From the NCBI GenBank assembly GCA_947500525.1, contig CANMSH010000002.1, positions 682,001 to 746,000 of the forward strand: DNA of 64,000 nt, given 5' to 3'. The DNA is from an uncultured Flavobacteriaceae bacterium (GTDB lineage Bacteria; Bacteroidota; Bacteroidia; Flavobacteriales; Flavobacteriaceae). Made by a program: the position numbers and the translations under genes. The notes below the pieces were generated by a model. That model ran no database searches, had not been told where the DNA came from, and saw only the letters and a program-made list of their open reading frames with translations. Of the stretch, positions 2,278-16,295 are shown in pieces. Positions within the stretch are counted from its first letter, which is position 1, and each line of letters starts with the position of its first letter.

Positions 2278-2694
2278 TCAAATTAAATAACTCTCGTCAA
2301 GTTTGAAAATTTGCCTGACAATAAGAGGAGGAGGGTATTCTGAGAACGATGTTGTATTCTCTTCTAATCCTTCAAAAAGATTGACGTAGGTATATACAAA
2401 TGAAGCGGCAAAAAATTGTTGATCTAGTGACAAGGTGTCGAATGTAATCTTTAACTCATCTTGTCCTTCAACTACATCTATAACATCTTCACAACAGGAT
2501 TTTTTCTTTTGATGCGCTTCGCATGATGTTTCTACCATCATTTTTTCCATTTCACATTTTTCAGCTTCAAAAAATACCGAAGTATCTTTTAACTCATCCC
2601 CACAATAGTGTTGATGAATTGTAAAAGAAAATGTAGAAAAAAGCACGATGAGTGCCATTAAAAAAGATCCTATTTTATGAATTATTTGTTTCAT
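2278..2694 (-). CDS. HYC_CC_PP-family small Cys-rich exported protein
   Basis: A 138-residue protein of the Bacteroidota family named after its HYC, CC and PP motifs. Here they are HYCG at residues 29-32, KKSCCED near the middle and YPPPL close to the C-terminus. Residues ~9-26 form a hydrophobic signal or anchor segment, so the Cys/His-rich part should face the periplasm. The family commonly sits beside metal-efflux genes. The downstream CusA-type permease fits a periplasmic metal-binding or sensing helper, but the biochemical function is unknown. The start follows a TAnnTTTG box by only 8 nt. An alternative is a plain structural periplasmic protein. Confidence 0.75.
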   Translation of the reverse strand: MKQIIHKIGSFLMALIVLFSTFSFTIHQHYCGDELKDTSVFFEAEKCEMEKMMVETSCEAHQKKKSCCEDVIDVVEGQDELKITFDTLSLDQQFFAASFVYTYVNLFEGLEENTTSFSEYPPPLIVRQIFKLDESYLI

Positions 2695-2702
2695 TTACAG
2701 AA

Positions 2703-2710
2703 CAAAGTTA
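2703..2710 (-). promoter_or_regulatory. Bacteroidota -7 promoter box for the HYC_CC_PP/CusA operon
   Basis: The minus strand reads TAACTTTG, an exact TAnnTTTG match, ending 8 nt before the start codon at 2694. No clear TTG element lies 19 nt upstream. Confidence 0.55.
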
Positions 2711-2883
2711 CAAAAACCATCTATAACTGGCTTAAAATTTTGTTAAATCAAAATTATATTACAGTCCTATAACGATTATTAAGCAATCATATTTTAAAAA
2801 TCAGAAAATCAATGACTTTTGCTAAGCTATTGAACTTTTAAAGATTTTAATTTACACCTCCATTAGATTATTAAAGTATATTT

Positions 2884-3300
2884 TTAGCTACTGAAGACTT
2901 CATCATCATTTTTGAAATTTTTAAATTCAATTTCATAGCCATTAGGATCCATTACGAAGAAGGATAAGTGCTCACCTAACTTATTCTTTAAGAAAGTAGC
3001 TTCAGCGGTCACTTCCAAATTCATTCCAAACAATTTTGAGTATAATTTCCCCCACAACTCAACATCTACAATAACTCCAAAATGAAAAGAGGGCAATATC
3101 TCATTTTCAAATCGATAGTTTTTATAGTCGAATTTAAAATTACCTGTTTTGGTAAATGTTACTTGGTTGCCATGAAGGTTTATATCAATCCAGTTTTCTG
3201 AATATCGCCCAAGCGTTGCCCCTAAAGTATTAACATAGAACTTTTTTGTATCCTCAATATTAAGACAAGGTAATGATAAGTGAAATGCAAATTTTTTCAT
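2884..3300 (-). CDS. VOC (glyoxalase/dioxygenase fold) family protein
   Basis: A 138-residue single-domain protein with paired beta-alpha-beta-beta-beta modules typical of the vicinal oxygen chelate superfamily. The N-terminal half begins FAFHLSLPCLNIEDTKKFY, with His7 in the usual first metal-ligand position. The C-terminal half has FFVMDPNGYEIEFKNF, the DPxGxxxEF ending with the last Glu ligand. The family includes glyoxalases, extradiol dioxygenases and antibiotic-resistance proteins, and the substrate cannot be told. It is the last gene of the leftward string and is separated from its upstream neighbour by a terminator hairpin, so it may be transcribed on its own. Confidence 0.8.
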   Translation of the reverse strand: MKKFAFHLSLPCLNIEDTKKFYVNTLGATLGRYSENWIDINLHGNQVTFTKTGNFKFDYKNYRFENEILPSFHFGVIVDVELWGKLYSKLFGMNLEVTAEATFLKNKLGEHLSFFVMDPNGYEIEFKNFKNDDEVFSS

Positions 3301-3316
3301 AATTCAGAAATATTAA

Positions 3317-3338
3317 GGGCAGCACTTTAGTGCTGCCC
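3317..3338 (-). terminator. Stem-loop terminator after the small secreted acidic protein gene
   Basis: A perfect 10-bp inverted repeat (GGGCAGCACT/AGTGCTGCCC) with a 2-nt centre lies 9 nt past the stop codon of the upstream leftward gene. On the minus strand it is followed by TTAATATTTC, a moderate U-rich tail. Confidence 0.65.
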
Positions 3339-3346
3339 ATTAGTTC

Positions 3347-3658
3347 TTATTCATTTAGCTTTAAGTCTACAATAGTAAACAGTGTATATTCTTCATCATC
3401 CTCATCTAACTCAGTTTCTGTTGTGTAGGTAACTTCAAAATTTTTACCCTTGAATTTCGCATCCTTAAGGTCATATTTTTTACTTGCTACCGAATTGATT
3501 TGCTGAAATTCATAGAACTCTTTTTCTCCTTCAGCTGAGAAATAATAGATGTCATTTTCATAACCATCAAAAATTGCTGTAATAGTGGTTTTATCTTGAT
3601 TGGCTTCAATACTAACGAATGATATAAATGTCAATAGTGTTATAAATAGTGCTTTCAT
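3347..3658 (-). CDS. Small secreted acidic protein, paralogue of the 3839-4108 product
   Basis: 103 residues of unknown function. Residues 1-19 (MKALFITLLTFISFVSIEA) are a clear signal peptide. The mature part is acidic at its C-terminus (LDEDDEEYT). It aligns by eye with the product of 3839-4108 over nearly the whole mature length: IF..Y...YY.F, F.QIN, a DL pair, F.VTY, and a run of Asp/Glu followed by F.I..L.L. The pair is therefore a duplicated domain with one exported and one cytoplasmic copy. It sits downstream of the polyamine genes, but 180 nt and an inverted repeat separate it from its paralogue. No enzyme motif is visible. Confidence 0.7.
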   Translation of the reverse strand: MKALFITLLTFISFVSIEANQDKTTITAIFDGYENDIYYFSAEGEKEFYEFQQINSVASKKYDLKDAKFKGKNFEVTYTTETELDEDDEEYTLFTIVDLKLNE

Positions 3659-3731
3659 CTTTTTAAATTTTAAATATTAACAAATTTCTTTATTTCCGAA
3701 GTATACATCACCTCAAGTTCGGAGGCTTTTA

Positions 3732-3756
3732 GCGAGTAACGATCGATATTACTCGC
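3732..3756. other. 8-bp inverted repeat between the two paralogous genes
   Basis: GCGAGTAA (3732-3739) and TTACTCGC (3749-3756) form a hairpin over a 9-nt loop containing GATCGAT. There is no T-run, so an operator or RNA structure is as likely as a terminator. Confidence 0.35.
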
Positions 3757-3838
3757 GCGTGATTAAATTACAACATGACTCTCTCCATATAAAATTTACA
3801 AAGTTTGATTAAAATTATTCTCTAAACTGTCATCAGAT

Positions 3839-4108
3839 TCATTTCGAACCTAGCAGTTCAAGCTTTCTAATTCTAAAAATGATAAAATCATCATCATCAG
3901 ATTCATCTAAAAGTTCTTCATAGGTAACATTAAATTTGCTCTCGATATATCTATTACCTCGTAGATCGAATTCTTCTAAAACAGTTTTATTTATTTGCTC
4001 AAAAACGATCAATTCATCAAATTCAAATTTGAATGTATAATACCCATCGTGATATTTTACAAATATTCCTTCCTCAATTTTTGTTTGAAATATATTATAG
4101 TCTGCCAT
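3839..4108 (-). CDS. Small cytoplasmic acidic protein, paralogue of the 3347-3658 product
   Basis: 89 residues with no signal peptide. It shares with the secreted neighbour the pattern IF..Y..YY.F, FEQIN (residues ~36-40), FDLR, FNVTYEE and the acidic DESDDDD run before the final strands. The small all-beta look is inferred from alternating hydrophobic residues. Unknown function; not recognised as a named family. It lies in the same direction as, and 61 nt beyond, the 93-residue protein gene and the polyamine genes, so it may be a distal member of that operon. Confidence 0.65.
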   Translation of the reverse strand: MADYNIFQTKIEEGIFVKYHDGYYTFKFEFDELIVFEQINKTVLEEFDLRGNRYIESKFNVTYEELLDESDDDDFIIFRIRKLELLGSK

Positions 4109-4169
4109 AACTTCTCATTTTAACAGTTCATATTTATGCGTCATATTACTATATGACTATTGCTTGCAA

Positions 4170-4451
4170 TTAATCTTCTATTTCTTCTGTGTCTATATCC
4201 AAATCGTAATTTTCATCTAATTCGTGATCCTCCATAGCTGCGATCAGTTTTTTACTCACTTTTACCAGATATATAGTATCATCGGTGCGTACTTCGACAC
4301 ACTCTATCATCTCATTATATTGATTCTTAAATGAAATAATATCACTCGTATTATAACCGTCGGGATAACCCGTTACTAATAAATTTAATATGTCATCATT
4401 AAGTTTGTGGTAGTCTACAATGACCCTTCTAAAATTTTGATCTTTTTTCAT
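4170..4451 (-). CDS. Small acidic protein encoded directly after the deoxyhypusine-synthase-like gene
   Basis: 93 residues, unknown function. The N-terminal half is basic and mixed; the last 25 residues are strongly acidic (ending DIDTEEIED). There is no signal peptide or membrane segment. Only 1 nt separates its start from the stop of the deoxyhypusine-synthase-like gene, so the two are almost certainly translated from one mRNA. That makes it a plausible accessory protein of polyamine metabolism (inference from position only). Confidence 0.65.
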   Translation of the reverse strand: MKKDQNFRRVIVDYHKLNDDILNLLVTGYPDGYNTSDIISFKNQYNEMIECVEVRTDDTIYLVKVSKKLIAAMEDHELDENYDLDIDTEEIED

Positions 4452-4452
4452 C

Positions 4453-5436
4453 TTACATATGTAATAAATAGGCGAATATTAACGGTGCAACAATGGTTGC
4501 ATCAGACTCTATAATAAATTTAGGAGTATCGATATCTAACTTACCCCATGTGATTTTTTCGTTAGGAACAGCACCAGAATAGGAGCCATAACTAGTCGTA
4601 GAATCACTTATTTGGCAGAAATAACTCCAAAATGGTGTTTCTGGTCTTTCCATATCTTGATACAACATGGGTACTACGCAAATTGGGAAATCTCCAGCAA
4701 TGCCTCCTCCTATTTGGAAAAACCCAATTCCTTGCTTAGAATTTTCGGTATACCAATCCGCCAAGTACGTCATATACTCAATCCCTGACTTCATGGTACT
4801 GGCTTTTAATTCACCTTTCAAAACATAACTTGCGAAGATATTCCCCATTGTACTATCTTCCCAGCCAGGTACAACAATGGGTAGATTTTTCTCCGCAGCG
4901 GCATACATCCAGGAATCTTTGATGTCTATTTCATAATATTCTTCTAAAACACCAGACAGTAATAATTTGTACATATACTCATGTGGGAAATAACGTTCAC
5001 CAGCTTCTTCAGCATCTTTCCAAATTTTATAAATGTGTTTTTGCAAACGTCTAAAAGCCTCCTCTTCTGGTATACATGTATCAGTAACTCTATTTAGTCC
5101 TTTTTCAAGTAGCTCCCATTCATCTGCTGGAGTCAAATCTCTATAGTTTGGTACGCGCTTATAATGTGAATGGGCGACCAAATTCATAATATCTTCTTCT
5201 AAGTTTGCTCCAGTACAAGAAATAATATGCACTTTGTCTTGACGTATTACTTCGGCAAATATTTTACCTAATTCAGCAGTGCTCATAGCTCCTGCCAACG
5301 AAACCAACATTTTAGACCCATTTGCTAATTGCTGCTCATATCCTTTTGAGGCGTCAACGACCGAAGCAGCATTAAAATGCAAATAATGTTTTTCAATAAA
5401 ATTGGAAACAGCTCCCTTTTTAATACTCTCCATCAT
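4453..5436 (-). CDS. Deoxyhypusine synthase-like protein, probable polyamine-modifying enzyme
   Basis: 327 residues matching the deoxyhypusine/homospermidine synthase fold: a Rossmann-type NAD site (HIISCTGANLEEDIMN; GGGIAGDFP) and the active-site block ending ITWGKLD with Lys299, aligned by eye with the catalytic lysine of eukaryotic deoxyhypusine synthase. Bacteria lack eIF5A, the classical substrate, so bacterial members are thought to act on free polyamines, for example making homospermidine. The gene overlaps the agmatinase stop by 17 nt and follows arginine decarboxylase, which supplies agmatine and then putrescine, so a polyamine substrate is the natural reading. The exact product is inferred. 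Confidence 0.85.
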   Translation of the reverse strand: MMESIKKGAVSNFIEKHYLHFNAASVVDASKGYEQQLANGSKMLVSLAGAMSTAELGKIFAEVIRQDKVHIISCTGANLEEDIMNLVAHSHYKRVPNYRDLTPADEWELLEKGLNRVTDTCIPEEEAFRRLQKHIYKIWKDAEEAGERYFPHEYMYKLLLSGVLEEYYEIDIKDSWMYAAAEKNLPIVVPGWEDSTMGNIFASYVLKGELKASTMKSGIEYMTYLADWYTENSKQGIGFFQIGGGIAGDFPICVVPMLYQDMERPETPFWSYFCQISDSTTSYGSYSGAVPNEKITWGKLDIDTPKFIIESDATIVAPLIFAYLLHM

Positions 5437-6358
5437 CTTTAAATTTTGACAATTGATTAAAAGGACTCTCTATAGTATCATCTTGATAATCATCTATTTT
5501 TTCGTTAGAAGAAAATTTATAACTCAACATCTTATAATACAGTTTCGCTGCTAAAAAGTCGGACGATTTTTCTGTAGGGTTTGGACATAACTCTACAATA
5601 TCAAAACCCACCACATTCTTTTCTTCGAATACTTTCTTTAAAAAATCAAGTGTTTCATACCATAATAACCCACCTGGTTCTGGCGTGCCTGTGGATGGCA
5701 TTATTGATGGGTCAAGTGCATCTAAATCAAAGGTGATAAAAACAGTATCTGTCATCTGATCGATAGCATTCTCCATCCAATAGTCATCAGCAACCATATC
5801 GTGTGCATAAAACGTTTTATCATCTTCAGCAATGGTTTTCTCAATAGCATCCATGCTACGAATTCCAACTTGTACTAAGTTTGTTGTTTGACTCGCTTCA
5901 TATGCGGCACAAGCATGATTACATGATGAACCTTCGTATTCCTTTCTTAAATCTGCATGCGCATCAATATGCAATACGGTAAGATTATTGAAGCATTCAT
6001 TAAAGGCTCGAATTGTTCCTATTGAAACTGAATGCTCACCACCAAAAATGGTCACAAACTTGTTCTTTTTAATGTATTTTTTTGTGACTTCATGAACAAC
6101 ATCCACCATGGCTTCTGGAGAGCTATTTTCAGTGACTGCATCTGCCAAATAAACACCTTCCTTATATACTTCTGATGCGGTTTCTATGTCATATAACTCC
6201 ATGTTCTCAGAAGCCTCTAAAAAAGCTTCAGGACCTTTATCTGCACCTTTTTGCCATGTACTTGTACCATCATAAGGAACAGGTATTAATACAATTTTTG
6301 CTTTATCAATACCGGCATACTTTTCTTCTATACCTGCATAGGTTTTCTTTGTATTCAT
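5420..6358 (-). CDS. speB: Agmatinase (ureohydrolase family)
   Basis: Hydrolyses agmatine to putrescine and urea in the cytoplasm. The 312 residues are the usual family length. The binuclear Mn site is complete: GGEHSVS, then HIDAHADLR, and FDLDALDPSIMPSTGTPEPGG-type sequence in the C-terminal third. The upstream gene at 6370 encodes arginine decarboxylase, the enzyme that makes its substrate, only 11 nt away, and the downstream deoxyhypusine-synthase-like gene overlaps by 17 nt. Together they form a compact arginine-to-polyamine operon. Close ureohydrolases (arginase, guanidinobutyrase) are alternatives, but the operon favours agmatinase. Confidence 0.92.
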   Translation of the reverse strand: MNTKKTYAGIEEKYAGIDKAKIVLIPVPYDGTSTWQKGADKGPEAFLEASENMELYDIETASEVYKEGVYLADAVTENSSPEAMVDVVHEVTKKYIKKNKFVTIFGGEHSVSIGTIRAFNECFNNLTVLHIDAHADLRKEYEGSSCNHACAAYEASQTTNLVQVGIRSMDAIEKTIAEDDKTFYAHDMVADDYWMENAIDQMTDTVFITFDLDALDPSIMPSTGTPEPGGLLWYETLDFLKKVFEEKNVVGFDIVELCPNPTEKSSDFLAAKLYYKMLSYKFSSNEKIDDYQDDTIESPFNQLSKFKDDGEY

Positions 6359-6369
6359 TTTATTAATTA

Positions 6370-7815
6370 TTAATGTGTTGTCACTAATTCTTTTTTGTCT
6401 AGTTTGATTATGTCTTTATTTTGGCTGTATCCTAAAATCGATAGTAATTCTTCTGAACTTTGTTGTTCTGCAAACACTGAGGTTACTAAGTTTCCAAAAT
6501 CATCCATATCAATAAGTATATGTTTAGGATTGGGAATTAAACAATGTTGTAAGCCTCCAAAACCACCAATATTTTCTTGATAAGCACCTGTATTAAAAAA
6601 GCCTATATATAAGGGTTTGTCCTTATCATAATTGGGTAAATAAATGGCGTTTGAGTTCTGTTCAGAATTGTAATAATCATCACTGTCACAGGTCAATCCA
6701 CCTAATAAAACGCGTTCATATGTATCTTTCCAACGATTGATTGGTAACATGATGAATCTTTTATTGATTGCCCAAGTATCAGGTAATGTTGTGATAAATG
6801 AAGAATTGATCATATTCCATTTTTCGCGATCATTTTGTTGTTTTTGATACAATACTTCATATATAGCTCCACCACTTTCACCAACTGTAAAACTGCCAAA
6901 TTCAGTAAAAATATGAGGTACAGCAACATTAGCTTCGCTACATACGATGTTGATCTGGTTCACAATTTCATCGATCATGTATTCATAATGGTAGTCAAAA
7001 GCCAAAGAAGTCTTGATTGGAAATCCTCCGCCAATATTTAAGCAGTCGAGGGTTGGACATTCCTTTTTTAATTGTGTATAGACTTTTAAGCATTTGTGTA
7101 ATTCATTCCAATAATAAGCGTTGTCTTTTATGCCCGTATTGATAAAGAAATGGAGCATCTTTAATGCTACTTTGTCATTATTCTTAATTTGATTCTTGTA
7201 AAAGGGAATAATATTTTTATAACCAATTCCTAATCGAGATGTATAAAACTCAAACTTGGGCTCTTCTTCAGAGGCAATTCGGATTCCTATTTTATAATTC
7301 CCTTCGATTTCGGTTGATAGCAAATCAATCTCTTCATAATTATCAATAATAGGAATACAGTTATGATGGCCATGATTAATTAAGCGAGCAATATTTGAAA
7401 CATATTCTGCTCGTTTAAAACCATTACAAATGACATAGGTATTATCATTGATCTTACCATTAGCTTTAAGATTTTCCACAATATTAATATCGAATGTTGA
7501 TGAAGTCTCTATATGGATTTCATTTTTCAGAGCCTCATCTATTACATGCTTAAAGTGAGAGCTTTTGGTACAATAGCAGTAATTATATGATCCTTTGTAA
7601 TTGTATTTTTCAATAGCTTTTTTAAACCAATGCTTAGCTCGCTGAATATTTTCAGATATTTTTGGTAGATAAGTAAATTTTAAGGGAGTCCCATAAGTTT
7701 CTACCAGTTTTGAAAGGTCGAGATCATGAAACTGTAGTTTATCCTCTTTAAGCGTAAACTCAGGTTGAGGAAAATCATATGTTTGATCGATGAGATCAAT
7801 GTATTTTGTTTTCAT
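6370..7815 (-). CDS. speA: Biosynthetic arginine decarboxylase (short Bacteroidota type, PLP fold III)
   Basis: Decarboxylates arginine to agmatine, the first step of putrescine synthesis. 481 residues, shorter than the ~630-residue enterobacterial SpeA. The N-terminal alanine-racemase-type barrel carries the likely Schiff-base Lys84 in CYCTKSSHFKHV. The loop LNIGGGFPIKT binds the PLP phosphate, and GLTCDSDDYYN near the C-terminus provides the catalytic Cys-Asp pair across the dimer. It is first of the speA-speB-deoxyhypusine-synthase-like string. It is preceded by a ~1-kb gene-free region with palindromes 34 and ~130 nt upstream, suggesting its own regulation. Other fold-III decarboxylases are less likely given the agmatinase partner. 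Confidence 0.88.
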   Translation of the reverse strand: MKTKYIDLIDQTYDFPQPEFTLKEDKLQFHDLDLSKLVETYGTPLKFTYLPKISENIQRAKHWFKKAIEKYNYKGSYNYCYCTKSSHFKHVIDEALKNEIHIETSSTFDINIVENLKANGKINDNTYVICNGFKRAEYVSNIARLINHGHHNCIPIIDNYEEIDLLSTEIEGNYKIGIRIASEEEPKFEFYTSRLGIGYKNIIPFYKNQIKNNDKVALKMLHFFINTGIKDNAYYWNELHKCLKVYTQLKKECPTLDCLNIGGGFPIKTSLAFDYHYEYMIDEIVNQINIVCSEANVAVPHIFTEFGSFTVGESGGAIYEVLYQKQQNDREKWNMINSSFITTLPDTWAINKRFIMLPINRWKDTYERVLLGGLTCDSDDYYNSEQNSNAIYLPNYDKDKPLYIGFFNTGAYQENIGGFGGLQHCLIPNPKHILIDMDDFGNLVTSVFAEQQSSEELLSILGYSQNKDIIKLDKKELVTTH

Positions 7816-7848
7816 TATTGCTTATTAAAATAATTAGACTAGAATAGT

Positions 7849-7865
7849 GTACTATTGAATAGTAC
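7849..7865. promoter_or_regulatory. 17-bp perfect palindrome upstream of speA
   Basis: GTACTATT-G-AATAGTAC, with 8-bp arms around one central base, lies 34 nt before the speA start codon. The size and symmetry fit a homodimeric repressor site. No regulator for it is identified in the window. Confidence 0.45.
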
Positions 7866-7920
7866 TTTAATAAATAATCGGGTATGTAAGCAATAAGATT
7901 TAAACTCGTAATTGCTTCTG

Positions 7921-7957
7921 CCTTGTGACGACAAGGGCAAAAGAAACTATAGTTTCT
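7921..7957. promoter_or_regulatory. Hairpin and 16-bp palindrome in the speA upstream region
   Basis: CCTTGT-GACG-ACAAGG (7921-7936) is a 6-bp hairpin. AGAAACTATAGTTTCT (7942-7957) is a perfect 16-bp palindrome right beside it. On the speA strand they would form adjacent structures ~110-140 nt ahead of the start codon, so they could be part of a structured leader or operators. Confidence 0.35.
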
Positions 7958-8528
7958 AGGAAGTTCTTTGAAGAAGTTGGCTCTAAGATTCGGTTACTTA
8001 TCCAATAAGCTGCTTTTTGATGTAACTTCTTAATTATCAAAAGCCCGAAACAACAAACACGTTTCAAAATGTTAAATTAAATACTCGTTAAAAGTATATT
8101 TAGACACTGCTAATGTAAACTATTTTTTAAAATAAAACTTTTTTTTAATATTTTTTTGACAAATATCGAAAATGAAATATGTGACTAATTTTCTATCTAA
8201 AGTAAAATTCACCTTCGTATGTACTACTACCGATATTTTAGCAATAGACTTGGCATTATTCATTTGAATACATAAATACTAATAATGAATGATAAATTTA
8301 GTTAACTATAAATTCTTACGTTCAATCTCTAACTATTCACAAAATTCTGTGGCATTTAAAGGTCACCAAGTATTTCAACCTTTTTTGCCCATTTAAAAAG
8401 AGATATTTAATAATAAATCGTAGTCTGAGATTAAATACAAGGTGTCAGTTGAAGAATTAAATAAGTGACACCGAATTGGTCACCTTTTACTAATAATATT
8501 TAGTTTCATTTGAAACTAAATAAAATGA

Positions 8529-8562
8529 AAAAGCCTACAAATAGTGATATTTGTAGGCTTTT
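8529..8562. terminator. Strong bidirectional rho-independent terminator
   Basis: A perfect 15-bp stem (AAAAGCCTACAAATA pairing with 8548-8562) over a 4-nt loop, with T-runs on either strand. It lies just left of the tRNA-Ser 3' fragment. This is the same arrangement as the intact tRNA-Ser and its terminator at 16.2 kb, so it may be the original terminator of that tRNA gene. Confidence 0.8.
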
Positions 8563-8584
8563 GTTGCTATTTGATAGCATTTTC

Positions 8585-8608
8585 AGCGGAGAAAGAGGGA
8601 TCAGAACC
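8585..8608 (-). repeat. tRNA-Ser 3'-end fragment, candidate attachment site (left)
   Basis: Positions 8585-8601 (AGCGGAGAAAGAGGGAT) are identical to 16209-16225, the 3' acceptor end and part of the T arm of the intact tRNA-Ser. After two mismatches GAACC matches again (8604-8608). The orientation is direct relative to the intact gene. No D-arm, anticodon arm or variable arm follows, so this is not a second tRNA gene. This is the footprint left when an element integrates at a tRNA 3' end. Confidence 0.65.
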
Positions 8609-8809
8609 TTACGTATAATTACTTAGTTATCAAATATTTAAAATTTGTATTCTACCCTACTCACCGAATTAGACACCGAATCTGAAACAGTACTTTTTAT
8701 CCACGTACTTATCGAATTAAAATAGTTAGAATTGACTAGATATAGTATCATAAAACGTTGGTTAAAGGGACTACTAATTTCTTCGAATCTAGGCTGAAGA
8801 AATGTATAT

Positions 8810-9424
8810 TTAAGCGTTTTTCTGATTCAATGAAGAATGATAACTATCAAGACGTTCTAGATATTGAATTGTTTGTTCTCTTTCCTCTTTGTTTAAATCT
8901 CCAAGCACATCTTCCATTGATTGAAAATCTTTCAAAATGGTAAACAAGACCTTTTGTCCATTATCGCTCATTGAAACCAATTTTTCTCTCTTATCTTTTG
9001 GATTCACTCTTTCTTTTAAGAAATCTTGTTTCAGCATTCTTTTAAGCATATCAATTCCCGTGGTAAGTTCGATAAGGTTCTCTTCGATAAGGTATTTCTT
9101 GGTCGCCTCCTTTTTCTCCAAAAGGGTAGTGAGTATAGAAAACTCATCAAAGGAATTTAAACCTACTCCCATCATGATTGGTCGAGAATAAATTTTGGAG
9201 AACTTATATAATCGGAAAATAACTCGCCCAGCCTCTGCGGTTAAATAGGGGTATTCAAAAGTTTTTTCAGGCAATTTAAAGTCTTTCTCAGTGCTTTCTT
9301 TTTTTAATCTTTCGGCTTCTTGTAAAATATACATGGCGAAATTTTCAAGACTATCGCCATGATTCGTCTCTAGAAATAATTCCCATTTATGTATTAAAGG
9401 CTTGTATGATATTTTCTTGGTCAT
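8810..9424 (-). CDS. MarR-family winged-helix transcriptional regulator
   Basis: About 204 residues when read from the ATG at 9424 (MTKKISYKPLI). A longer frame upstream adds a hydrophobic stretch that overlaps the promoter and is unlikely. The central part (SILTTLLEKKEATKKYLIEENLIELTTGIDMLKRMLKQDFL) has the MarR order of helix-turn-helix and recognition helix, followed by a wing (NPKDKREKLVSMSDNGQKVL) with the Asp-x-Arg and Lys pattern. MarR proteins are dimeric repressors released by small ligands. It is divergent from the exporter operon with 99 nt between the start codons, and three repeats lie in that gap, so it very likely controls the operon and itself. Confidence 0.85.
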   Translation of the reverse strand: MTKKISYKPLIHKWELFLETNHGDSLENFAMYILQEAERLKKESTEKDFKLPEKTFEYPYLTAEAGRVIFRLYKFSKIYSRPIMMGVGLNSFDEFSILTTLLEKKEATKKYLIEENLIELTTGIDMLKRMLKQDFLKERVNPKDKREKLVSMSDNGQKVLFTILKDFQSMEDVLGDLNKEEREQTIQYLERLDSYHSSLNQKNA

Positions 9425-9461
9425 TTGAATCTTAAAATATGTTGCGAAAATATAAAAAAAT

Positions 9462-9516
9462 AACGAAAACATTTTTTAATATAACGAAAACATTGTATAT
9501 TTGCAACGAAAACATT
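9462..9516. promoter_or_regulatory. Three direct repeats in the MarR/exporter intergenic region, candidate operators
   Basis: AACGAAAACATT occurs at 9462-9473, 9483-9494 and 9505-9516, that is at 21- and 22-nt spacing, about two helical turns. A weaker relative (TTGCGAAAATAT) begins at 9443. The repeats straddle the exporter -7 box and run up to 8 nt before its start codon, well placed for repression. The direct-repeat layout is unusual for MarR proteins, which usually bind palindromes. Confidence 0.6.
9496..9503 (+). promoter_or_regulatory. -7 promoter box of the exporter operon
   Basis: TATATTTG matches TAnnTTTG exactly and lies between the second and third repeats. The expected transcript start is only ~15 nt before the ATG at 9524, so the leader is very short. 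Confidence 0.6.
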
Positions 9517-9523
9517 GTATTTT

Positions 9524-10228
9524 ATGACGAAATCCTACATAGCAGAAGTTAAAAGTGCCTCAAAGCAATACATGTCAGGAGACAACACAATAACTGCATT
9601 ACATCCTACGTCTATTAAGCTGAAAAAAGGAGAGATGGTTCTGTTGTTGGGGCCTTCGGGCAGCGGAAAAACCACCCTTCTGTCACTTCTTGGTTGTGTA
9701 ATATATCCCTCTGCAGGAGATGTGATTATCAAGAATCAGCACTTGAATAACCTTAAAGATAGGGAGCTTTCTGACTTAAGATTAAGAGAGATAGGTTTCG
9801 TATTTCAAAACTACAATCTCATTGCTCCCTTAACAGCGCTAGAAAACGTACTTATACCACTTCAACTAATGAAAATCTCTAAAGCAAAGGCCCGAGAAAA
9901 GGCAATAGCGGCATTGGATTCGGTAGGTATGTTAGATCGAATGAACAATATTCCAAAAAAGCTTAGCGGAGGACAACAACAACGTGTAGCTATTGCCAGG
10001 TCTTTGGTCAATGACCCTTCATTGATTCTGTGTGATGAACCAACAGCCTCATTAGACCCGAAAAGTGTTTCATACATCATGGAAAGGCTGAAAAGCCTAG
10101 TAACCGATGGGAGGACTGTGGTAATAGTTACCCATGATTTAAGGCTCATACCTTATGCGGATAGAATCTATGAAGTTGACAACGGTCACGTTAAGGAAAC
10201 GAAAAAAGAAGAATTAAAAACACATTAA
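9524..10228 (+). CDS. ABC exporter ATP-binding subunit (MacB/LolD/DevA type)
   Basis: Cytoplasmic ATPase that powers the exporter. 234 residues from the ATG at 9524; a TTG nine bases earlier lies inside the last operator repeat and is less likely. Seen in order: Walker A GPSGSGKTT, Q-loop FVFQNYNLIAPL, signature LSGGQQQRVAIARS, Walker B LILCDEPTASLD, and H-loop VTHD. This belongs to the MacB/LolD class, whose members energise FtsX-fold permeases without themselves spanning the membrane. It is the first gene of the five-gene unit and is followed 11 nt later by the adaptor gene. Confidence 0.93.
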   Translation: MTKSYIAEVKSASKQYMSGDNTITALHPTSIKLKKGEMVLLLGPSGSGKTTLLSLLGCVIYPSAGDVIIKNQHLNNLKDRELSDLRLREIGFVFQNYNLIAPLTALENVLIPLQLMKISKAKAREKAIAALDSVGMLDRMNNIPKKLSGGQQQRVAIARSLVNDPSLILCDEPTASLDPKSVSYIMERLKSLVTDGRTVVIVTHDLRLIPYADRIYEVDNGHVKETKKEELKTH

Positions 10229-10239
10229 AATAACACTAA

Positions 10240-11199
10240 ATGACCAAATCACTTTCAATAATTTCTATTCTATTTTTATTGTATTCCTGTTCTGACGGAA
10301 CCGAGAATAAATCAACTAAAAACGCAGCAGAAACAATCGTTACATCTAACAAAACTATTACTAGTGCCTTTGGGAATGGACGGATAGAATCAGAATTTAA
10401 AGTTATTAAGTTGGCCAGCTCATCAACCGGAATTCTAACGAAAGTTTTGAAAAATGAAAACGAGTCTGTGAAAAAAGGAGATGTTCTAGCCGAACTAGAA
10501 AAGTCGGCAGAGGACGGTGAAGTCCAAAAAGTTTTGGCTCAGATTAAAAAATTCAGAACCCAGAATGAAATTAATAGCGTAGAAATTCGCGAAGGGGAAC
10601 AACGTTTATTCAATTCTTCTAGGGAATTACAGCGGTCTAAAGCACTTGTCGATTTGGGTGCTGAAACCAAACAAGATTATGATGATGCTTCTTTGAATTA
10701 TGAGTTGGAACAATCAAAATTAGATAAGGCAAGTACAAATAGAATAATTACGAATAGTGAAATCGAAGCACTGTATGCAGAACTTAAAATTGCGAAGGCG
10801 CTTCGAAACCGAAAAAATATTACCGCCCCCACTGATGGTAAAGTTTTAGAATGGCAAATTTCACATGGAGAGGGAACACAAATATCAACAACTGTAGCGC
10901 AATTTGCTCCAGAGGGTAAACTAATCGCCGTTTGCGAAATAGATGAATTGTTGGCCGATAAACTTCAAATAGGGCAGAAAGCTATTATCCGTGCACAAGA
11001 CAGAAAAAACACTATTGGTGAAGGTCAAGTATATTTTCTTTCAGATTTTTTGAATAGTAAATCTATTTTCGGCGATTCTTCTTCTGAGGCAATTGACAGA
11101 AGGGTTAGAACGGTAAAAATCAGTTTTGACAAGCAGCCGAATTTACTTATCAACAGTCGTATACAGTGCGAGATAATACTCAATTCAATTAACCCGTAA
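10240..11199 (+). CDS. Periplasmic adaptor (HlyD/DevB-type membrane-fusion) lipoprotein
   Basis: Links the inner-membrane ABC permease to the outer-membrane channel. 319 residues. A lipobox (LLYSC, Cys17) predicts lipid anchoring. Then come a short lipoyl-like half (GILTKVLKNENESVKKGDVLAEL), a coiled-coil hairpin at ~85-190 rich in Lys, Glu and Gln, the second lipoyl half (ITAPTDGKVLEW) and a beta-barrel domain (GQKAIIRAQDRKN). The order is that of classic membrane-fusion proteins of DevBCA/MacAB systems. It lies between the ATPase and permease genes with gaps of 11 and 13 nt, so it is certainly part of one transcription unit. Confidence 0.9.
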   Translation: MTKSLSIISILFLLYSCSDGTENKSTKNAAETIVTSNKTITSAFGNGRIESEFKVIKLASSSTGILTKVLKNENESVKKGDVLAELEKSAEDGEVQKVLAQIKKFRTQNEINSVEIREGEQRLFNSSRELQRSKALVDLGAETKQDYDDASLNYELEQSKLDKASTNRIITNSEIEALYAELKIAKALRNRKNITAPTDGKVLEWQISHGEGTQISTTVAQFAPEGKLIAVCEIDELLADKLQIGQKAIIRAQDRKNTIGEGQVYFLSDFLNSKSIFGDSSSEAIDRRVRTVKISFDKQPNLLINSRIQCEIILNSINP

Positions 11200-11212
11200 T
11201 CAAATTCCACAA

Positions 11213-12346
11213 ATGTCAATATTAAAAACTGCTTTTCAATTTATTCGTTTTGATAAGGCCAAAAGTATCGGTGTTACCATAGGTATCGTCATCAGTACTT
11301 TTTTAATAGGTCAACAATTGGGAATCTTGAACTTTCTCACTGGCCTTATGGTCACAACAGCAACCAATGCAGATGCCCAAATTTGGGTAATCGATAGTAG
11401 CTCTAAAGACATCAATCAACTTGGAAAGTTAGATATCAAAAAGATGAACGAGGTACTAAGTATAACTGGAGTAAAAGAAGCGTATCCTATTGTAATTGCA
11501 GGTGGCAGTGCAACATATAAGAATGGTGCTACCGCAGGTTTGCTGTTGATTGGAAGCGACAGTCCCACGTTCCCTGCCGGACCAAAACCTAAAAACATAA
11601 AGAAAGGGGAAATCTCGGATTTGCAAAAAGACCTTGCCATAAGTTCTGATTTTTTTGATACCGAGACTTTGGGTGGCAGTACTACCCCAGGCACTATGCT
11701 CGAGATTAATGGTAAGCGTGCTGTCATCGAAGTACAAACAAAGGGTGTGCGAGGCTTTGGTGCGCCAATAGCCTATACGACCATTGAAAGAGCGCGATAT
11801 TTTGGAGGCATCCCTTCAACAATAATCAATGCCGTTTTGGTCAACTGCAAAAAAGGTATAGTAGTTGAAGATGTAGTGTCCAATATTAATCGAACGCTTT
11901 CAGGCGTGTGTGCATGGCGAGCGGATGATTTGAAGGACAGCACCATTGCGGTAGTCTTGGGCTCCAGTGGTATTGCGGTAAGTACCGGGTCACTTATCAT
12001 TTTTGCGTTGATTTCCGGATTTTTTATTATCGGTCTAACCTTATATTCAAGTGCACTAGATCGATTAAGAGATTATGGAACCTTAAAAGCAATAGGTGCA
12101 AAAAACGGGTATATTCGAAAATTGATACTGACCCAGGCGCTTCTTTTCGCCTTAGTTGGTTTCGTTCTCGCATATATACTTATAGAACTTTTTAGAATAG
12201 GGGTTGCTAAAACGGGCCTTATTTTTAACCTATCCCCTTTAACTTTATTTGGAATGTTCGTGGTCATCGTCTTGATTTCTGCAGGGAGTTCCGCATTTGC
12301 TCTAAAAAGAATAAAGAGTGTTGAACCAGCTTCCGTTTTCCGATAA
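11213..12346 (+). CDS. ABC transporter permease, FtsX/MacB fold (DevC-like)
   Basis: Inner-membrane subunit of the exporter. 377 residues with the four-helix FtsX layout: TM1 at ~18-38 (SIGVTIGIVISTFLIG), a large periplasmic domain at ~45-255, then three helices at ~265-290, 305-335 and 340-365. The sequence RLRDYGTLKAIGAKNGYI between the second and third helices is the typical coupling segment that contacts the ATPase. The single-FtsX architecture with separate ATPase and adaptor genes resembles DevC of the cyanobacterial glycolipid exporter more than MacB, in which ATPase and permease are fused. The substrate is unknown. Confidence 0.88.
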   Translation: MSILKTAFQFIRFDKAKSIGVTIGIVISTFLIGQQLGILNFLTGLMVTTATNADAQIWVIDSSSKDINQLGKLDIKKMNEVLSITGVKEAYPIVIAGGSATYKNGATAGLLLIGSDSPTFPAGPKPKNIKKGEISDLQKDLAISSDFFDTETLGGSTTPGTMLEINGKRAVIEVQTKGVRGFGAPIAYTTIERARYFGGIPSTIINAVLVNCKKGIVVEDVVSNINRTLSGVCAWRADDLKDSTIAVVLGSSGIAVSTGSLIIFALISGFFIIGLTLYSSALDRLRDYGTLKAIGAKNGYIRKLILTQALLFALVGFVLAYILIELFRIGVAKTGLIFNLSPLTLFGMFVVIVLISAGSSAFALKRIKSVEPASVFR

Positions 12347-12361
12347 ATAAAGAACCGTATC

Positions 12362-13708
12362 ATGAAAAAACTTTTTGTAATCATCCTAATTTTTACCATA
12401 ACCTTTACTCGTGCGCAACAATCCAAGCTTTCATTAAAAGAGTGTATCGCATTGGCCTTAAACGAACAACCTAGATTTCAGACTGAAAAAATAAAATCCG
12501 AAAATAGTGTTTTTGATGTAAAAGTGGCAAAATCTGCTCTTGGTCCACAAGTTGCCTTGACCTACAACTATCAATACAACGCAGTTAGACCCACTTCATT
12601 AGTACCTACAGCTCTTACCAGACCTTCGAATAATACCAGTATGACTGGAGATTTTACTGAACTACAGTTCGGTACAACATGGCAGCAAGATTTTGGTGTT
12701 AGTTTATTTCAACCCTTGTACGACAGACAAATCAATTCAAAAATTACTGAAAGTCGCATTACTGAACAATTGGGTATTTTAGAGAAAGAAGAAGAGAAAG
12801 AAGAGATCATTTATGAGGTTGTAGAAACTTATCTCAAAGTATCACAAAAACAGTTGGAATACCGCGTTGGGATTATTGATACAATTAGAACGCACAAAAC
12901 TGTACAGTTGATACAATTAGGTTACCAGCAAGGTAGAATATTGAAAACAGAACTAAATATGGCATTGATAAACCACAATAATTCCAAGTCCATATTGGCT
13001 AAGGTAACGAATGAATTAGATGCAGAATATGTCAATTTAGGCTTTCTTATCGGTTATGACAAAGTCAAAGAGGTGGATGAAAAATTTTACAAACAGATTG
13101 ATGGACTATTTTCAAATATGGAGGCTATTGGAATAAATGATAGAGAATCAATCACATCAAAAATCTTGAAAACCCGTGATTCATTATTAGCTCAAAAAAT
13201 AATTTCGAACAAAATGTCCAGGTTACCGACCTTAGCCTTTGACGCTTTTTGGGGTGCAAACCAATTCAATCAAAATTTTAGACCTTTTGAAGCAGATACT
13301 TGGTTTGGCAATAGTTTTCTTGGTGTTTCTTTAAAACTTCCCTTATTAAGTGCTAATGGGACAAAGAATAAAATAGCCAAACTAAGAGGGGAGCGAGCTA
13401 TGAAAGCACAGGAATTACTAGAGGATGAAAATCGAAAAATCCAAGAAAAAAAACAGTTGGACATTAGCATACGGACTTTAAAAAGTGAACTTGTATTTCT
13501 AAAAGAAAATATGGCACTACGTAAGTCAAGTCTGGCCATATATCAAGCTCGGTTTTCGAATGCGAAAGCAAATACTTACCAAATTAATGAAGAAGAGTTA
13601 TTGTTACAGAAAAGTTCTGAATTGTTTTACAGCAAACAATCCGAACTATGGTCGGCTGTGCTGAAAATGTATAAAAATCAGGGTAGGTTAATGGAATTTT
13701 TAAATTGA
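12362..13708 (+). CDS. TolC-family outer-membrane channel
   Basis: Outer-membrane exit duct for the exporter. 448 residues with a signal peptide (MKKLFVIILIFTITFTRAQ), the family start SKLSLKECIALALNEQPRF, and two repeats of long amphipathic alpha-helices (~30-240 and ~245-440) separated by short beta-strand segments such as FGVSLFQPLYDRQINSKI. Having its own channel gene means the operon encodes a complete inner-to-outer-membrane conduit. The start is 15 nt after the permease stop. The stop overlaps the region just before the GH3 start, so translation of the two is probably coupled. Confidence 0.92.
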   Translation: MKKLFVIILIFTITFTRAQQSKLSLKECIALALNEQPRFQTEKIKSENSVFDVKVAKSALGPQVALTYNYQYNAVRPTSLVPTALTRPSNNTSMTGDFTELQFGTTWQQDFGVSLFQPLYDRQINSKITESRITEQLGILEKEEEKEEIIYEVVETYLKVSQKQLEYRVGIIDTIRTHKTVQLIQLGYQQGRILKTELNMALINHNNSKSILAKVTNELDAEYVNLGFLIGYDKVKEVDEKFYKQIDGLFSNMEAIGINDRESITSKILKTRDSLLAQKIISNKMSRLPTLAFDAFWGANQFNQNFRPFEADTWFGNSFLGVSLKLPLLSANGTKNKIAKLRGERAMKAQELLEDENRKIQEKKQLDISIRTLKSELVFLKENMALRKSSLAIYQARFSNAKANTYQINEEELLLQKSSELFYSKQSELWSAVLKMYKNQGRLMEFLN

Positions 13709-13713
13709 ACAAC

Positions 13714-15663
13714 ATGAGAATAATAAAGCGCATAGGTAAGTTTTTAGGTTGCTCATTTTTAATCCTGCTATTGGTGGGAGCCCTAGTCCTCGGTTTCTAT
13801 TTTATAAAATGGAACTCTATTTCAAAAAATAATTTAGCGCTTTTAGATAAGCCAGCTAAAGAACTTATCTCAAAAGGGTTTACATATAGGGATTTAAACA
13901 AAAATGGAAAGCTAGATATTTATGAGGACAAAAGGGAACCAGTAGAGAGTCGTATCGATGACCTAATAAGTCAAATGCAGTTGGATGAAAAGGCGGGTTT
14001 GCTCTTCATTACTATGATAGCGATGAACCCAGATGGAGGCATTAGTGATGTGCCTACTTTCAAGGACCCGCTTACTTTCGCTTTTGACGCAAACTCGACT
14101 TATGTAGCCGCAAAAAAAATGAACCACTTTAATATCTTGCAGTCTCCGAGCGACCCTCTGGTACTTATCAAGTGGAATAACAATATTCAAAAACTTGCAG
14201 AACGCACAAGATTGGGCATTCCAGTCACAATAGCCTCGGATCCAAGACATGGAGTCAGAGATAATCCTGGGGCAGGAATAGAGTCCACACTTTTTTCGGA
14301 ATGGCCGTCTTCTCTTGGTCTAGCTGCGACACGGGATTCATCACTAGTCGCCGATTTTGGGCGAATCGTAAATCAGGAATATCGGTCGGTCGGTATCCGT
14401 CTTGCCCTAGGGCCAGTAGCAGATTTAGCTACGGAACCAAGGTGGGGAAGAATAAGTGATACATTTGGTGAAGATGCAACATTGAGCGCTAAAATGACTG
14501 CGGCCTATGTAAATGGCATGCAGGGAGATAGTTTAAATAACAAAAGTGTTGCCTGCATGACAAAACACTTTACGGGGGGTGGGCCACAAAAAGATGGGTG
14601 GGACGCCCACTTCGCCAATGGCAAGGAACAGGTTTATCCTGGAAACAATTTTGAGTACCATTTAATTCCTTTTGAAGCTGCTATGAAATCCAATACCGCT
14701 CAAATAATGACTTATTACGGAATTCCTGTGGGGCAGACTTCGGAAGAAGTAGCATTCGGCTTTAACAAAGACATTATTACCGGGTTACTTCGAACTAAAT
14801 ACGGGTATGATGGTGTAGTCTGTTCCGATTGGGGAATTGTTAGTGACATGTTGGTAAAACCAGCATCTGACTGGGGAATGGAAGGTGCCACTCCAAAAGA
14901 AAAGGTAGCGAAAATATTGGACGCTGGATCCGACATGTTCGGCGGTGAAGCTTTGCCGGAGCTTGTCATCGAACTGGTCAATGAAGGAAAAATAAAAGAA
15001 GAACGTTTAGATATCTCTGTCCGAAGAATCCTAAGGGACAAATTCGATCTAGGTCTTTTTGACGAACCTTATTTATCAGAATCCGATGCTGACATTCTTA
15101 GAAACGAGCTTTTCCTTTCTAAAGGGGCAGAGGCCCAACGGCGCTCATTGACCCTTCTTAAAAATGAAAATAGCACCTTGCCATTGGCAAAATCAAGTAA
15201 AGTCTACTTGCAAGGTTTCAATGAAGAATTGAAACTTAGTGCTGGTACTTTCGTAGACAATCCAGAAGATGCCGATTTCATCATCCTAAAACTGAATACC
15301 CCATTTGAACCAAGTAATGGCTCTATTTTAGAAAGATTCTTCAAACAAGGGAGATTAGATTTTCCTCAGAGAAAAAAGGAAGACTTGCTAAAACTCATCA
15401 AAACCAAGCCAACTATTACAGTTCTAACAATAGACAGACCACCTGTAGCGCCTGATATAAATCGAGCTAGTTCGGCGGTAATAGCGGATTTCTTTTCCTC
15501 TGAAGAAATCATTTTAAAAATGATTTTTGGAGAGTTCAGACCATCAGGTAAGCTTCCTTTAGAGATTCCATCATCTATGCAAGCGGTTGAAGAACAATTG
15601 GAAGACGTCCCTTACGATTCAAAAAATCCTATGTACCCATTTGGCCACGGTTTGAGTTATTAA
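13714..15663 (+). CDS. Glycoside hydrolase family 3 enzyme, membrane-anchored, without C-terminal Fn3 domain
   Basis: Retaining beta-glycosidase (beta-glucosidase or similar). 649 residues from the ATG at 13714, 5 nt after the TolC stop. An N-terminal hydrophobic helix (~12-32) suggests export and anchoring. A short DLNKNGKLDIYED element precedes the catalytic (beta/alpha)8 domain. The substrate-binding Lys284-His285 pair lies in MTKHFTGGG, and the nucleophile Asp372 in VVCSDWGIV. The second domain runs to the very end, YPFGHGLSY, where most relatives continue into a fibronectin-type domain; here it is missing. The position at the end of an export operon suggests it acts on the exported or sensed compound (inference). 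Confidence 0.9.
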   Translation: MRIIKRIGKFLGCSFLILLLVGALVLGFYFIKWNSISKNNLALLDKPAKELISKGFTYRDLNKNGKLDIYEDKREPVESRIDDLISQMQLDEKAGLLFITMIAMNPDGGISDVPTFKDPLTFAFDANSTYVAAKKMNHFNILQSPSDPLVLIKWNNNIQKLAERTRLGIPVTIASDPRHGVRDNPGAGIESTLFSEWPSSLGLAATRDSSLVADFGRIVNQEYRSVGIRLALGPVADLATEPRWGRISDTFGEDATLSAKMTAAYVNGMQGDSLNNKSVACMTKHFTGGGPQKDGWDAHFANGKEQVYPGNNFEYHLIPFEAAMKSNTAQIMTYYGIPVGQTSEEVAFGFNKDIITGLLRTKYGYDGVVCSDWGIVSDMLVKPASDWGMEGATPKEKVAKILDAGSDMFGGEALPELVIELVNEGKIKEERLDISVRRILRDKFDLGLFDEPYLSESDADILRNELFLSKGAEAQRRSLTLLKNENSTLPLAKSSKVYLQGFNEELKLSAGTFVDNPEDADFIILKLNTPFEPSNGSILERFFKQGRLDFPQRKKEDLLKLIKTKPTITVLTIDRPPVAPDINRASSAVIADFFSSEEIILKMIFGEFRPSGKLPLEIPSSMQAVEEQLEDVPYDSKNPMYPFGHGLSY

Positions 15664-15893
15664 AAAAATACAATAACTAATATAGTTTACACAAATTTTC
15701 ATAATTGATAACTTAATAATTGTAGAAAGATTGGTTCCTTGAAACCGCCAATTGAAAGAACGGAATAGGCAAAATTTACGAAGTTCCTAGAAACGATTGT
15801 TGAAATGAACTGATAAAGAAAATTGGTGATTCCCATAAAACGGTCATTTCATAAAACTATATAGATGAAATAAACTTCTAGAGAATTGAAGTC

Positions 15894-15992
15894 TTATTTT
15901 CTGTCTCTTTTAATAGCTTCGTTAATTGGCCTTTCATAAAACTTATTACCAGCTAATTGAATTAAATTAGGGGACCTGTCAAAAAATAAAAA
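15894..15992 (-). pseudogene. Possible C-terminal remnant of a decayed gene
   Basis: The minus strand has an open frame ending at a TAA (15894-15896) that reads like ordinary protein: LIQLAGNKFYERPINEAIK and a basic tail. Upstream it runs into a REP-like palindrome and no start is present. The family is not recognised, and it could be chance. Confidence 0.2.
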
Positions 15993-16001
15993 AAGATAAT
16001 C

Positions 16002-16022
16002 ATCCCGCACTTGATGCGGGAT
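16002..16022. repeat. REP-like palindrome
   Basis: ATCCCGCA (16002-16009) and TGCGGGAT (16015-16022) form an 8-bp G+C-rich hairpin over a 5-nt loop. It is conspicuous in this A+T-rich gap and of a type often dispersed in intergenic DNA. No second copy was noticed in the window. Confidence 0.5.
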
Positions 16023-16162
16023 CCATTTTGCAGGGATTACTCGCTACGCTCATGATCCCTCAATCACACGCTTGTTACAATGAAGCGCGATATCGCTAAC
16101 GCGCCCTCTCCTCTTTTTCTTTTTCCATTCGCTTGTAAAAACCACGTTTTTCAATACTCAGA

Positions 16163-16201
16163 GAAAAGAAAAAGCTCGATTTCTTTTCAGAAATCGAGCT
16201 T
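16163..16201 (-). terminator. Rho-independent terminator of tRNA-Ser
   Basis: An 11-bp stem (AAGCTCGATTT, 16172-16182, pairing with 16191-16201) over an 8-nt loop. On the minus strand it is followed by a TTTTTCTTTTC tail. It starts 10 nt past the tRNA 3' end. Confidence 0.8.
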
Positions 16202-16210
16202 CACTCTAAG

Positions 16211-16295
16211 CGGAGAAAGAGGGATTCGAACCCCCGGACCTGTTACAGTCAACAGTTTTCAAGACTGCCGCATTCGACCACTCTGCCATTTCTCC
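16211..16295 (-). tRNA. tRNA-Ser, anticodon TGA
   Basis: The full cloverleaf is readable on the minus strand: acceptor GGAGAAA/TTTCTCC with G discriminator, a three-pair D stem, anticodon loop CTTGAAA giving anticodon TGA (reads UCA), a long variable arm typical of serine tRNAs, and a T arm with GGTTCGAATCC. CCA is not encoded. The 3' end borders the putative island, and 17 nt of it are repeated at 8585. Confidence 0.95.

What the first reader, a model, noticed from the sequence alone, without database searches (positions are those of the whole stretch)
8585..16225. Direct repeat of the tRNA-Ser 3' end frames a 7.6-kb island without an integrase
A 17-bp identity with the tRNA-Ser 3' end (8585-8601 = 16209-16225) lies in direct orientation on the far side of the exporter/GH3 block. 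Both copies are followed on the minus strand by a strong hairpin terminator, as expected if an element inserted at the tRNA and displaced the old 3' end and terminator to the left. The cargo looks richer in G+C than its surroundings. No recombinase is present, so mobility would need help from elsewhere, or the element has decayed.
Basis: partly seen in the sequence, partly recalled or inferred. Interest (0 to 1): 0.75.

Follow-up and report, generated by a model that had tools for sequence, protein, structure and literature searches.

The report
Integrase-free island array at tRNA-Ser
The gene block beside this serine tRNA is one of three DNA cassettes stacked there, apparently by site-specific insertion; none carries its own integration enzyme, and a neighbouring cassette is almost identical in another species, so cargo-only DNA seems to move between bacteria with borrowed enzymes.

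Summary
The own genome holds four copies of the tRNA-Ser 3'-end 16-mer, same strand, within 39 kb, bounding segments of 17.6, 13.9 and 7.6 kb; the last is the finding. The three left copies continue into a shared 95-115 bp end absent from the tRNA copy, with CTCACC(G/T)AAT 51-52 nt from the core in all 10 genus left ends found. The same geometry lies at tRNA 3' ends across Bacteroidota, where 12 of 13 selected regions hold a tyrosine integrase, or pieces of one. Three own cassettes and six in two congeners show none. Cassette 1 differs from a congener's copy at 9 of 17,561 bases although 40 kb of aligned flank is 80% identical. In another congener the tRNA adjoins the 240 bp that lie left of the array: an empty-site-like junction. 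Best reading: cargo-only, CIME-like cassettes inserted by an integrase supplied in trans. Close precedent: Dehalococcoides ssrA islands. No movement was observed.

The parts
8585..8601 (+). Left core copy: 17-bp identity with the tRNA-Ser 3' end (left boundary of the 7.6-kb cassette)
8584..8698 (+). Conserved left end of the cassette: core plus ~100 bp, 81% identical to the left end of the array's first cassette
   Evidence: local 50584-50698, E 4e-24; alignment
8660..8681 (+). Two arm-like motifs, CTCACCGAAT (8660-8669) and CACCGAAT (8674-8681); the first lies 52 nt after the GAAC of the core
8470..8484 (-). Right-arm motif GGTGACCAATTCGGT of the neighbouring cassette 2, 102 nt from its core
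8529..8562 (-). Terminator-like hairpin in the right end of cassette 2
8810..9472 (-). 220-aa regulator-like protein; weak match to SarA/Rot, below the Pfam cut-off
9515..10228 (+). ABC transporter ATPase
   Evidence: PF00005
10240..11199 (+). Membrane-fusion protein (HlyD/CusB type)
   Evidence: PF16576
11213..12346 (+). FtsX-like permease
   Evidence: PF02687
12362..13708 (+). Outer membrane efflux protein
   Evidence: PF02321
13705..15663 (+). Glycoside hydrolase family 3 protein, 652 aa
   Evidence: PF00933, PF01915
16033..16059 (-). Palindrome ending TAATCCC; like palindromes lie downstream of tRNA-Ser in several congeners; possibly the true right border (inference)
16171..16202 (-). Terminator-like hairpin next to the tRNA
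16209..16225 (+). Right core copy, the 3' end of the intact tRNA gene
16210..16295 (-). tRNA-Ser (anticodon TGA), insertion target
1..8584 (.). Right part of cassette 2 (C2:676731-690585, begins outside the window): part of an AcrB-family exporter gene, and deoxyhypusine synthase, arginase-family and PLP-decarboxylase genes

Best explanation
The 7.6-kb block is the tRNA-proximal member of a tandem array of three site-specific cassettes at tRNA-Ser(UGA). Each cassette begins with a copy of the tRNA 3' end and arm-type repeats; the other two also end with an arm motif and a hairpin. Shown: the repeats, the shared ends, their fixed geometry, like ends on integrase-bearing elements at tRNA genes elsewhere in Bacteroidota, no integrase found in the arrays of three species, a near-identical cassette in two species whose flank is about 20% diverged, and an empty-site-like junction. 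Inferred: a tyrosine integrase of the Arm-DNA-bind_5/SAM_5 kind, supplied in trans by another element (one sits at the same tRNA in a congener) or formerly present, recombines the cassettes into the tRNA 3' end, each newcomer rebuilding the tRNA.
For: Four exact 16-mers in the own genome, one strand of one contig, none elsewhere with up to 1 mismatch. Left ends 81-86% identical over 95-115 bp. Core-to-arm gap 51-52 nt in all 10 left ends found in four genomes. 63 stretches (64 matches; gap 52 in 42 of 64) in genome contigs, 59 of 63 with Bacteroidota titles. 12 of 13 fetched, selected regions hold an integrase or pieces of one, pointing from the tRNA end toward attL. Right arm GGTGNNNNATTCGGT exact at 91-102 nt in 6 of 14 genus right ends, one mismatch in a 7th. 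Whole 421-aa integrase 239 bp from tRNA-Ser(UGA) in congener G010. Cassette 1: 9 differences in 17,561 bp between own genome and G004 against 80.45% over 40.4 kb of flank. Different cassette at the same point in G004; empty-site-like junction in G002.
Against: No excision, circle or transfer was observed; no reads were available. It has no right arm (best 5 of 11 letters wrong at the usual distance). 3 of 13 non-tRNA core copies read in the genus (G004 626004, G016, G015) have no left end. The right end of the proposed driver, G010, does not match the arm pattern. Near-identity between species runs 6 kb into cassette 2 and then falls to about 97%, which needs homologous recombination too. The empty site rests on 263 bp; further left own genome and G002 do not align there. 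The assembly is about 90% complete, so a resident integrase could be missing.
Confidence: 0.67

Rival explanations
1. The cassettes are relics of old integrase-bearing elements, and today's exchange between species is by homologous recombination (for example natural transformation) in shared end sequences and shared cassettes, without any integrase.
For: On its right the near-identical block ends inside cassette 2, not at a core. The 240 bp left of the first core (96%) and the right part of cassette 2 (97%) are alike enough to recombine. Cassette 2's right half also occurs in G002 inside a different cassette, so cassettes are mosaics. Of the 9 differences in the 240 bp, 6 lie at its far end and only 3 within 102 bp of the core, so the left border is not sharply placed.
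Against: The last difference on the left is 3 bp before the core and the next is 2.3 kb beyond it, as insertion at the core predicts, though this is modest evidence. Right ends of cassettes 1 and 2 keep exact arm motifs.
Confidence: 0.25
2. The own genome's two Arm-DNA-bind_5 integrases at tRNA-Pro move the tRNA-Ser cassettes in trans.
For: The right end of one of the two own tRNA-Pro elements, and that of a tRNA-Pro element in G004, carry the arm at 100 nt as the Ser cassettes do.
Against: Family members sit next to different genes (Ser, Arg, Pro, Val, Met tRNA, tmRNA), suggesting one target each; the two own ones are 42-44% identical to the tRNA-Ser integrase of G010; G002 has an array but no family member at E 1e-30.
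Confidence: 0.12
3. The left copy is a chance or duplicated tRNA fragment and the 7.6 kb is ordinary chromosome.
For: The G+C shift is modest; no relative with the exact 8584-16226 join was found.
Against: Copy number and clustering, shared ends beyond the tRNA sequence, fixed gap, and a different cassette at the same point in G004.
Confidence: 0.03

Closest known systems
Dehalococcoides ssrA genomic islands (PMC3146451; passages seen)
   Same: Tandem islands bounded by the 3' end of an RNA gene and its 20-bp repeats, conserved sequence beside the repeats; 15 of 31 islands lack the integration module and are suggested to be cis-mobilizable elements.
   Different: Target is tmRNA and the recombinases are serine recombinases; about half of those islands carry the module, against 0 of 9 cassettes found here in three species.
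CIMEs, cis-mobilizable elements (described in passages of PMC3146451; other papers only in the listing; the ICESt1 work is recalled)
   Same: Cargo between attachment sites without recombinase or transfer genes; tandem accretion.
   Different: No related ICE with the same ends was found at this tRNA in the own genome; element 3 has no recognisable right arm; accretion not demonstrated.
Riemerella anatipestifer islands at tRNA genes (PMC6764341, PMC9745183; passages seen)
   Same: A flavobacterium; island beside a tRNA with direct repeats (one is TCCCTCTCTCTCCGCAAAA, close to this core); integrase shown to integrate, and for the 10K island to excise.
   Different: Both carry their own integrase; no tandem integrase-less cassettes in the passages seen.
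tRNA elements with Arm-DNA-bind_5/SAM_5 integrases in Pedobacter, Sphingobacterium and others (seen here)
   Same: Left-end geometry, tRNA 3'-end core, right-end hairpin and, in 7 of 11 integrase-bearing ends, arm position.
   Different: They carry an integrase next to the tRNA; the window array does not.
Tycheposons (recalled; only a search listing seen)
   Same: As recalled: tRNA-targeting cargo elements with tyrosine recombinases in marine bacteria.
   Different: Not compared here; other phyla as recalled.

Membership tests
Cis-mobilizable element (CIME) | Flanked by attachment sites in direct orientation | tested here: met
   Direct 17-bp copies at both borders and a conserved left end
Cis-mobilizable element (CIME) | Functional attL and attR retained | tested here: inconclusive
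   Left end intact in sequence; right arm not found for element 3, exact for cassettes 1 and 2; function not testable
Cis-mobilizable element (CIME) | No integrase and no transfer genes | tested here: met
   Element 3: 6 of 6 main proteins; no integrase in the array regions
Cis-mobilizable element (CIME) | Moves in cis with an adjacent ICE or island | not testable with these tools
   No excision or transfer data
Arm-DNA-bind_5 integrase tRNA elements | Core from a tRNA 3' end and CTCACC(G/T)AAT about 52 nt further | tested here: met
   All 10 genus left ends found, 51-52 nt
Arm-DNA-bind_5 integrase tRNA elements | Integrase gene about 240-250 bp from the tRNA | tested here: not met
   None in the array: a cargo-only relative, not an autonomous member
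Arm-DNA-bind_5 integrase tRNA elements | Right arm and hairpin beside the core | tested here: inconclusive
   Element 3 has a hairpin but no arm; 4 of 11 integrase-bearing ends also miss the arm pattern
Integron cassette | Integron integrase beside the array | tested here: not met
   No Phage_integrase match in the array
Integron cassette | attC recombination sites | not tested
   No attC model was run; the sites seen are tRNA 3'-end cores with arms

The most novel reading that the evidence does not exclude
tRNA-Ser in this flavobacterial group anchors a cassette array that works without any resident integrase: cargo-only units with standard ends and their own terminators are added, exchanged between species and lost at the tRNA by integrases that arrive only transiently with other elements, much as an integron stores cassettes but without its own recombinase.
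Probability: 0.35. Interest if true: 0.65.

Novelty: new variant of a known kind. Interest (0 to 1): 0.55.

Why it matters
If right, whole gene sets (exporters, metal-efflux type systems, polyamine-type and cytochrome c552 genes in the cassettes seen) travel between bacteria as units that island finders keyed to an integrase would miss. The fixed end geometry gives a simple sequence signature for such cargo-only islands across Bacteroidota, and a direct test of trans-mobilisation by a named integrase.

Tried and rejected
Composition as proof of foreign origin: too weak. Integron-type integrases (364-391 aa) as the movers: they lie beside their own repeat arrays on other parts of the genomes; judged unlikely, not tested. 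Viral collection: 0 matches to the left-end pattern. A longer left-end motif with up to 2 mismatches was found in 2 of 149 genomes, the own and G004, so the exact motif is narrow. The first right-arm consensus had the wrong spacer length, corrected. Consensus folding of the right-end alignment gave no structure, with hairpins out of register; folded singly, 16 of 18 have z of -3.0 or lower against mononucleotide shuffles, and 2 (G004 581741 and the G004 tRNA-Pro element) do not. One search printed no alignments and was repeated. Insertion into the TAATCCC palindrome downstream of the tRNA was considered for G004, G016 and the own genome but could not be told from insertion of short terminator units.

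Literature: the listings (the last with 0 papers) showed no paper on integrase-less tRNA arrays in Bacteroidota; the library lacks most subscription journals.

Recheck: on re-reading (clustering of the left-hand differences) I raised the homologous-recombination rival from 0.20 to 0.25 and lowered the best reading from 0.70 to 0.67.
Full report
Observation. The 17-bp repeat is exact at 8585-8601 and 16209-16225 and occurs nowhere else in the window with up to 3 mismatches. The second copy is the 3' end of tRNA-Ser(UGA), 16210-16295, minus strand. Terminator-like hairpins lie beside both. The 7.6 kb is 37.4% G+C against 34.7% for the window.

An array, not one island. The window is C2:682001-746000 of the own genome. 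That genome holds four copies of the 16-mer core with up to 1 mismatch allowed, all exact, all on the plus strand of C2: 659170, 676731, 690586 (window 8586) and 698210 (the tRNA). They bound segments of 17,561, 13,855 and 7,624 bp. The three left copies share a further 95-115 bp at 81-86% identity that the tRNA copy lacks. These left ends hold CTCACC(G/T)AAT; in the 10 left ends found (own 3, G004 4, G002 2, G013 1) the gap from the core's GAAC to CTCACC is 51-52 nt. Three other non-tRNA core copies read (G004 626004, G016, G015) have no such end.

Relatives. The core occurs in 17 of 17 genus genomes. TauE-like and chorismate-synthase genes on one side of the tRNA are shared by many of them, while the other side mostly differs between species: an insertion hot spot (gene names from my reading of the sequences). 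G004 (contig length equal to public record CANKZQ010000002.1, uncultured Flavobacteriaceae) has left ends at 581741, 587297, 604858 and 618715; G002 (CANLUS010000002.1) at 463807 and 475462. Own 658930-690676 aligns with G004 587057-618805 at 99.2%, while 40.4 kb of aligned right flank is 80.45% identical. A 2.65-kb stretch just left of the own array (656239-658866) matches G004 569374-572001 at 81.2%, left of the G004 cassettes: ordinary divergence on that side too. Base by base, cassette 1 has 9 differences in 17,561 bp; the first 5.8 kb of cassette 2 has 3; the remaining 8.1 kb has 220; the 240 bp left of the first core have 9, six at their far end and the nearest 3 bp from the core. In G002 the tRNA core adjoins the ~240 bp that in the own genome lie left of copy 659170 (263 bp, 95.4%), an empty-site-like junction for all three cassettes; further left the two genomes do not align at that place. 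The exact join 8584-16226 was not seen.

No integrase found. None of the Phage_integrase matches in five genomes lies inside the arrays. tblastn with six integrase sequences or pieces found none in the own, G004, G002 or G016 regions, but did in G009 and G010 beside tRNA-Ser. So 0 of 9 cassettes (own 3, G004 4, G002 2; 7 distinct) shows one. Pfam scans covered 49 of 81 open frames of at least 90 aa: 6 of 6 main frames in element 3, 10 of 11 in cassette 2, 13 of 17 in cassette 1, 10 of 14 in two G004 cassettes and 10 of 33 in two G002 cassettes; no recombinase, transposase or transfer family was listed, and several proteins matched nothing.

Same ends elsewhere. The pattern GGGAWYMGAACN{50,54}CTCACCKAAT gave 63 stretches in the collection of 84,980 species genomes, 64 matches, gap 52 in 42 of 64; by titles and my knowledge of the names 59 of 63 are Bacteroidota, mainly Pedobacter and Sphingobacterium, and 8 of those 59 are from G004, G002 and G013. 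No chance control was run in that collection; viral contigs gave 0. Of 27 genomes chosen from these, 26 have Arm-DNA-bind_5 (PF17293) somewhere. I fetched 13 usable regions: 12 chosen because a match lay on the expected side within about 30 kb, plus Pedobacter gandavensis, chosen for its nearby tRNA; a 14th (G156) was dropped because the contig length disagreed. In 12 of 13 an integrase, or pieces of one (two cases), points from the tRNA end toward attL; in five with whole integrase and tRNA the distance is 247-249 bp. Three more of the 27 (Pedobacter planticolens, Sphingobacterium lumbrici, AC_MB531) showed no integrase in the expected orientation in the stretch read. So of 27: 12 with, 4 without in the stretch read, 11 not read. 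P. cryoconitis has two cassettes in tandem with one integrase, and P. gandavensis a 3.3-kb element without one.

Right ends. In the sense of the tRNA, the core is followed by hairpin(s) and then an arm: GGTGNNNNATTCGGT is exact at 91-102 nt in 6 of 14 genus right ends, two pairs of which are shared copies, and has one mismatch in a 7th; one more (G002 tRNA) has it behind the 240-bp block; six have none at the usual place, among them element 3 and two other G004 ends. Of 11 integrase-bearing ends 7 match an arm pattern at 100-104 nt; 4, including G010, do not. Of 18 right ends folded singly, 16 have z of -3.0 or lower although stem sequences differ. So these elements bring their own hairpin, and the one left of 8585 belongs to cassette 2. 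Element 3's right end has a hairpin but no arm (5 of 11 letters wrong at the usual distance, 4 anywhere in 540 nt).

Candidate driver. Congener G010 has a whole 421-aa integrase (SAM_5, Phage_integrase, Arm-DNA-bind_5) 239 bp from tRNA-Ser(UGA). Its end shares GGTGTCACTT...TCAACTGACACC with the right end of own cassette 2 (by eye) but not the arm pattern. In the genus 12 of 17 genomes have relatives of it at E 1e-30; G002, with an array, has none. Of 23 of the 29 loci so found, 19 hold a tRNA or tmRNA gene.

Mechanism. Shown: structure, distribution, near-identity of cassette 1 across species, empty-site-like junction. Inferred: integration by an integrase supplied in trans; stranding of element 3. 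Homologous recombination took part at least on the right side of the near-identical block.

Known and new. Dehalococcoides ssrA islands are the nearest precedent: tandem, 15 of 31 without integration modules (PMC3146451, passages). Riemerella tRNA islands show flavobacterial island integrases at work (PMC6764341, PMC9745183, passages). I rate this a new variant of a known kind.

Noticed in passing
L060 9147-10304, L063 4908-6083 (own genome C3 and C2); L061, L062, L065 in congeners: 364-391-aa tyrosine recombinases, each with a small cysteine-rich gene next to it, beside repeated sites (AACAACG...TATAATTAATTG): they look like chromosomal integrons (my reading; no attC model run).
   Followed up: partly
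G015 (L057), G005 (L055), G004 C2:626004-626179, G016 C1:1125372-1125570, own C2:658930-659170: Short gene-less units of about 128-240 bp with a terminator and a palindrome sit between tRNA-Ser, or a core copy, and a further core copy (G004 and G005 with mismatches; the own block's outer border is decayed). In G015 a 128-bp unit lies between two exact cores, as if terminator-only mini-cassettes inserted.
   Followed up: partly
L047, L048, L049 left of tRNA-Ser (G009, G007, G006): Repeated units ending in GGGATCACGAC...GAGTAATCC downstream of tRNA-Ser in congeners without the array (seen by eye).
   Followed up: no
window 4453-7815: Deoxyhypusine synthase, arginase-family and decarboxylase genes, often thought of as housekeeping, lie inside a cassette; the same segment is 97% identical in G002 within a different cassette.
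   Followed up: no
L106 (Sphingobacterium phlebotomi): Integrase-like match just left of an attL site, which suggests another tandem array whose distal cassette kept its integrase.
   Followed up: no
L144 (Pedobacter cryoconitis): Two-cassette tandem at tRNA-Lys with one integrase; the distal 4.1-kb cassette has ends but no integrase.
   Followed up: partly
L181, L182: Relatives (58-61% identical) of the G010 tRNA-Ser integrase sit beside tmRNA in two congeners.
   Followed up: no
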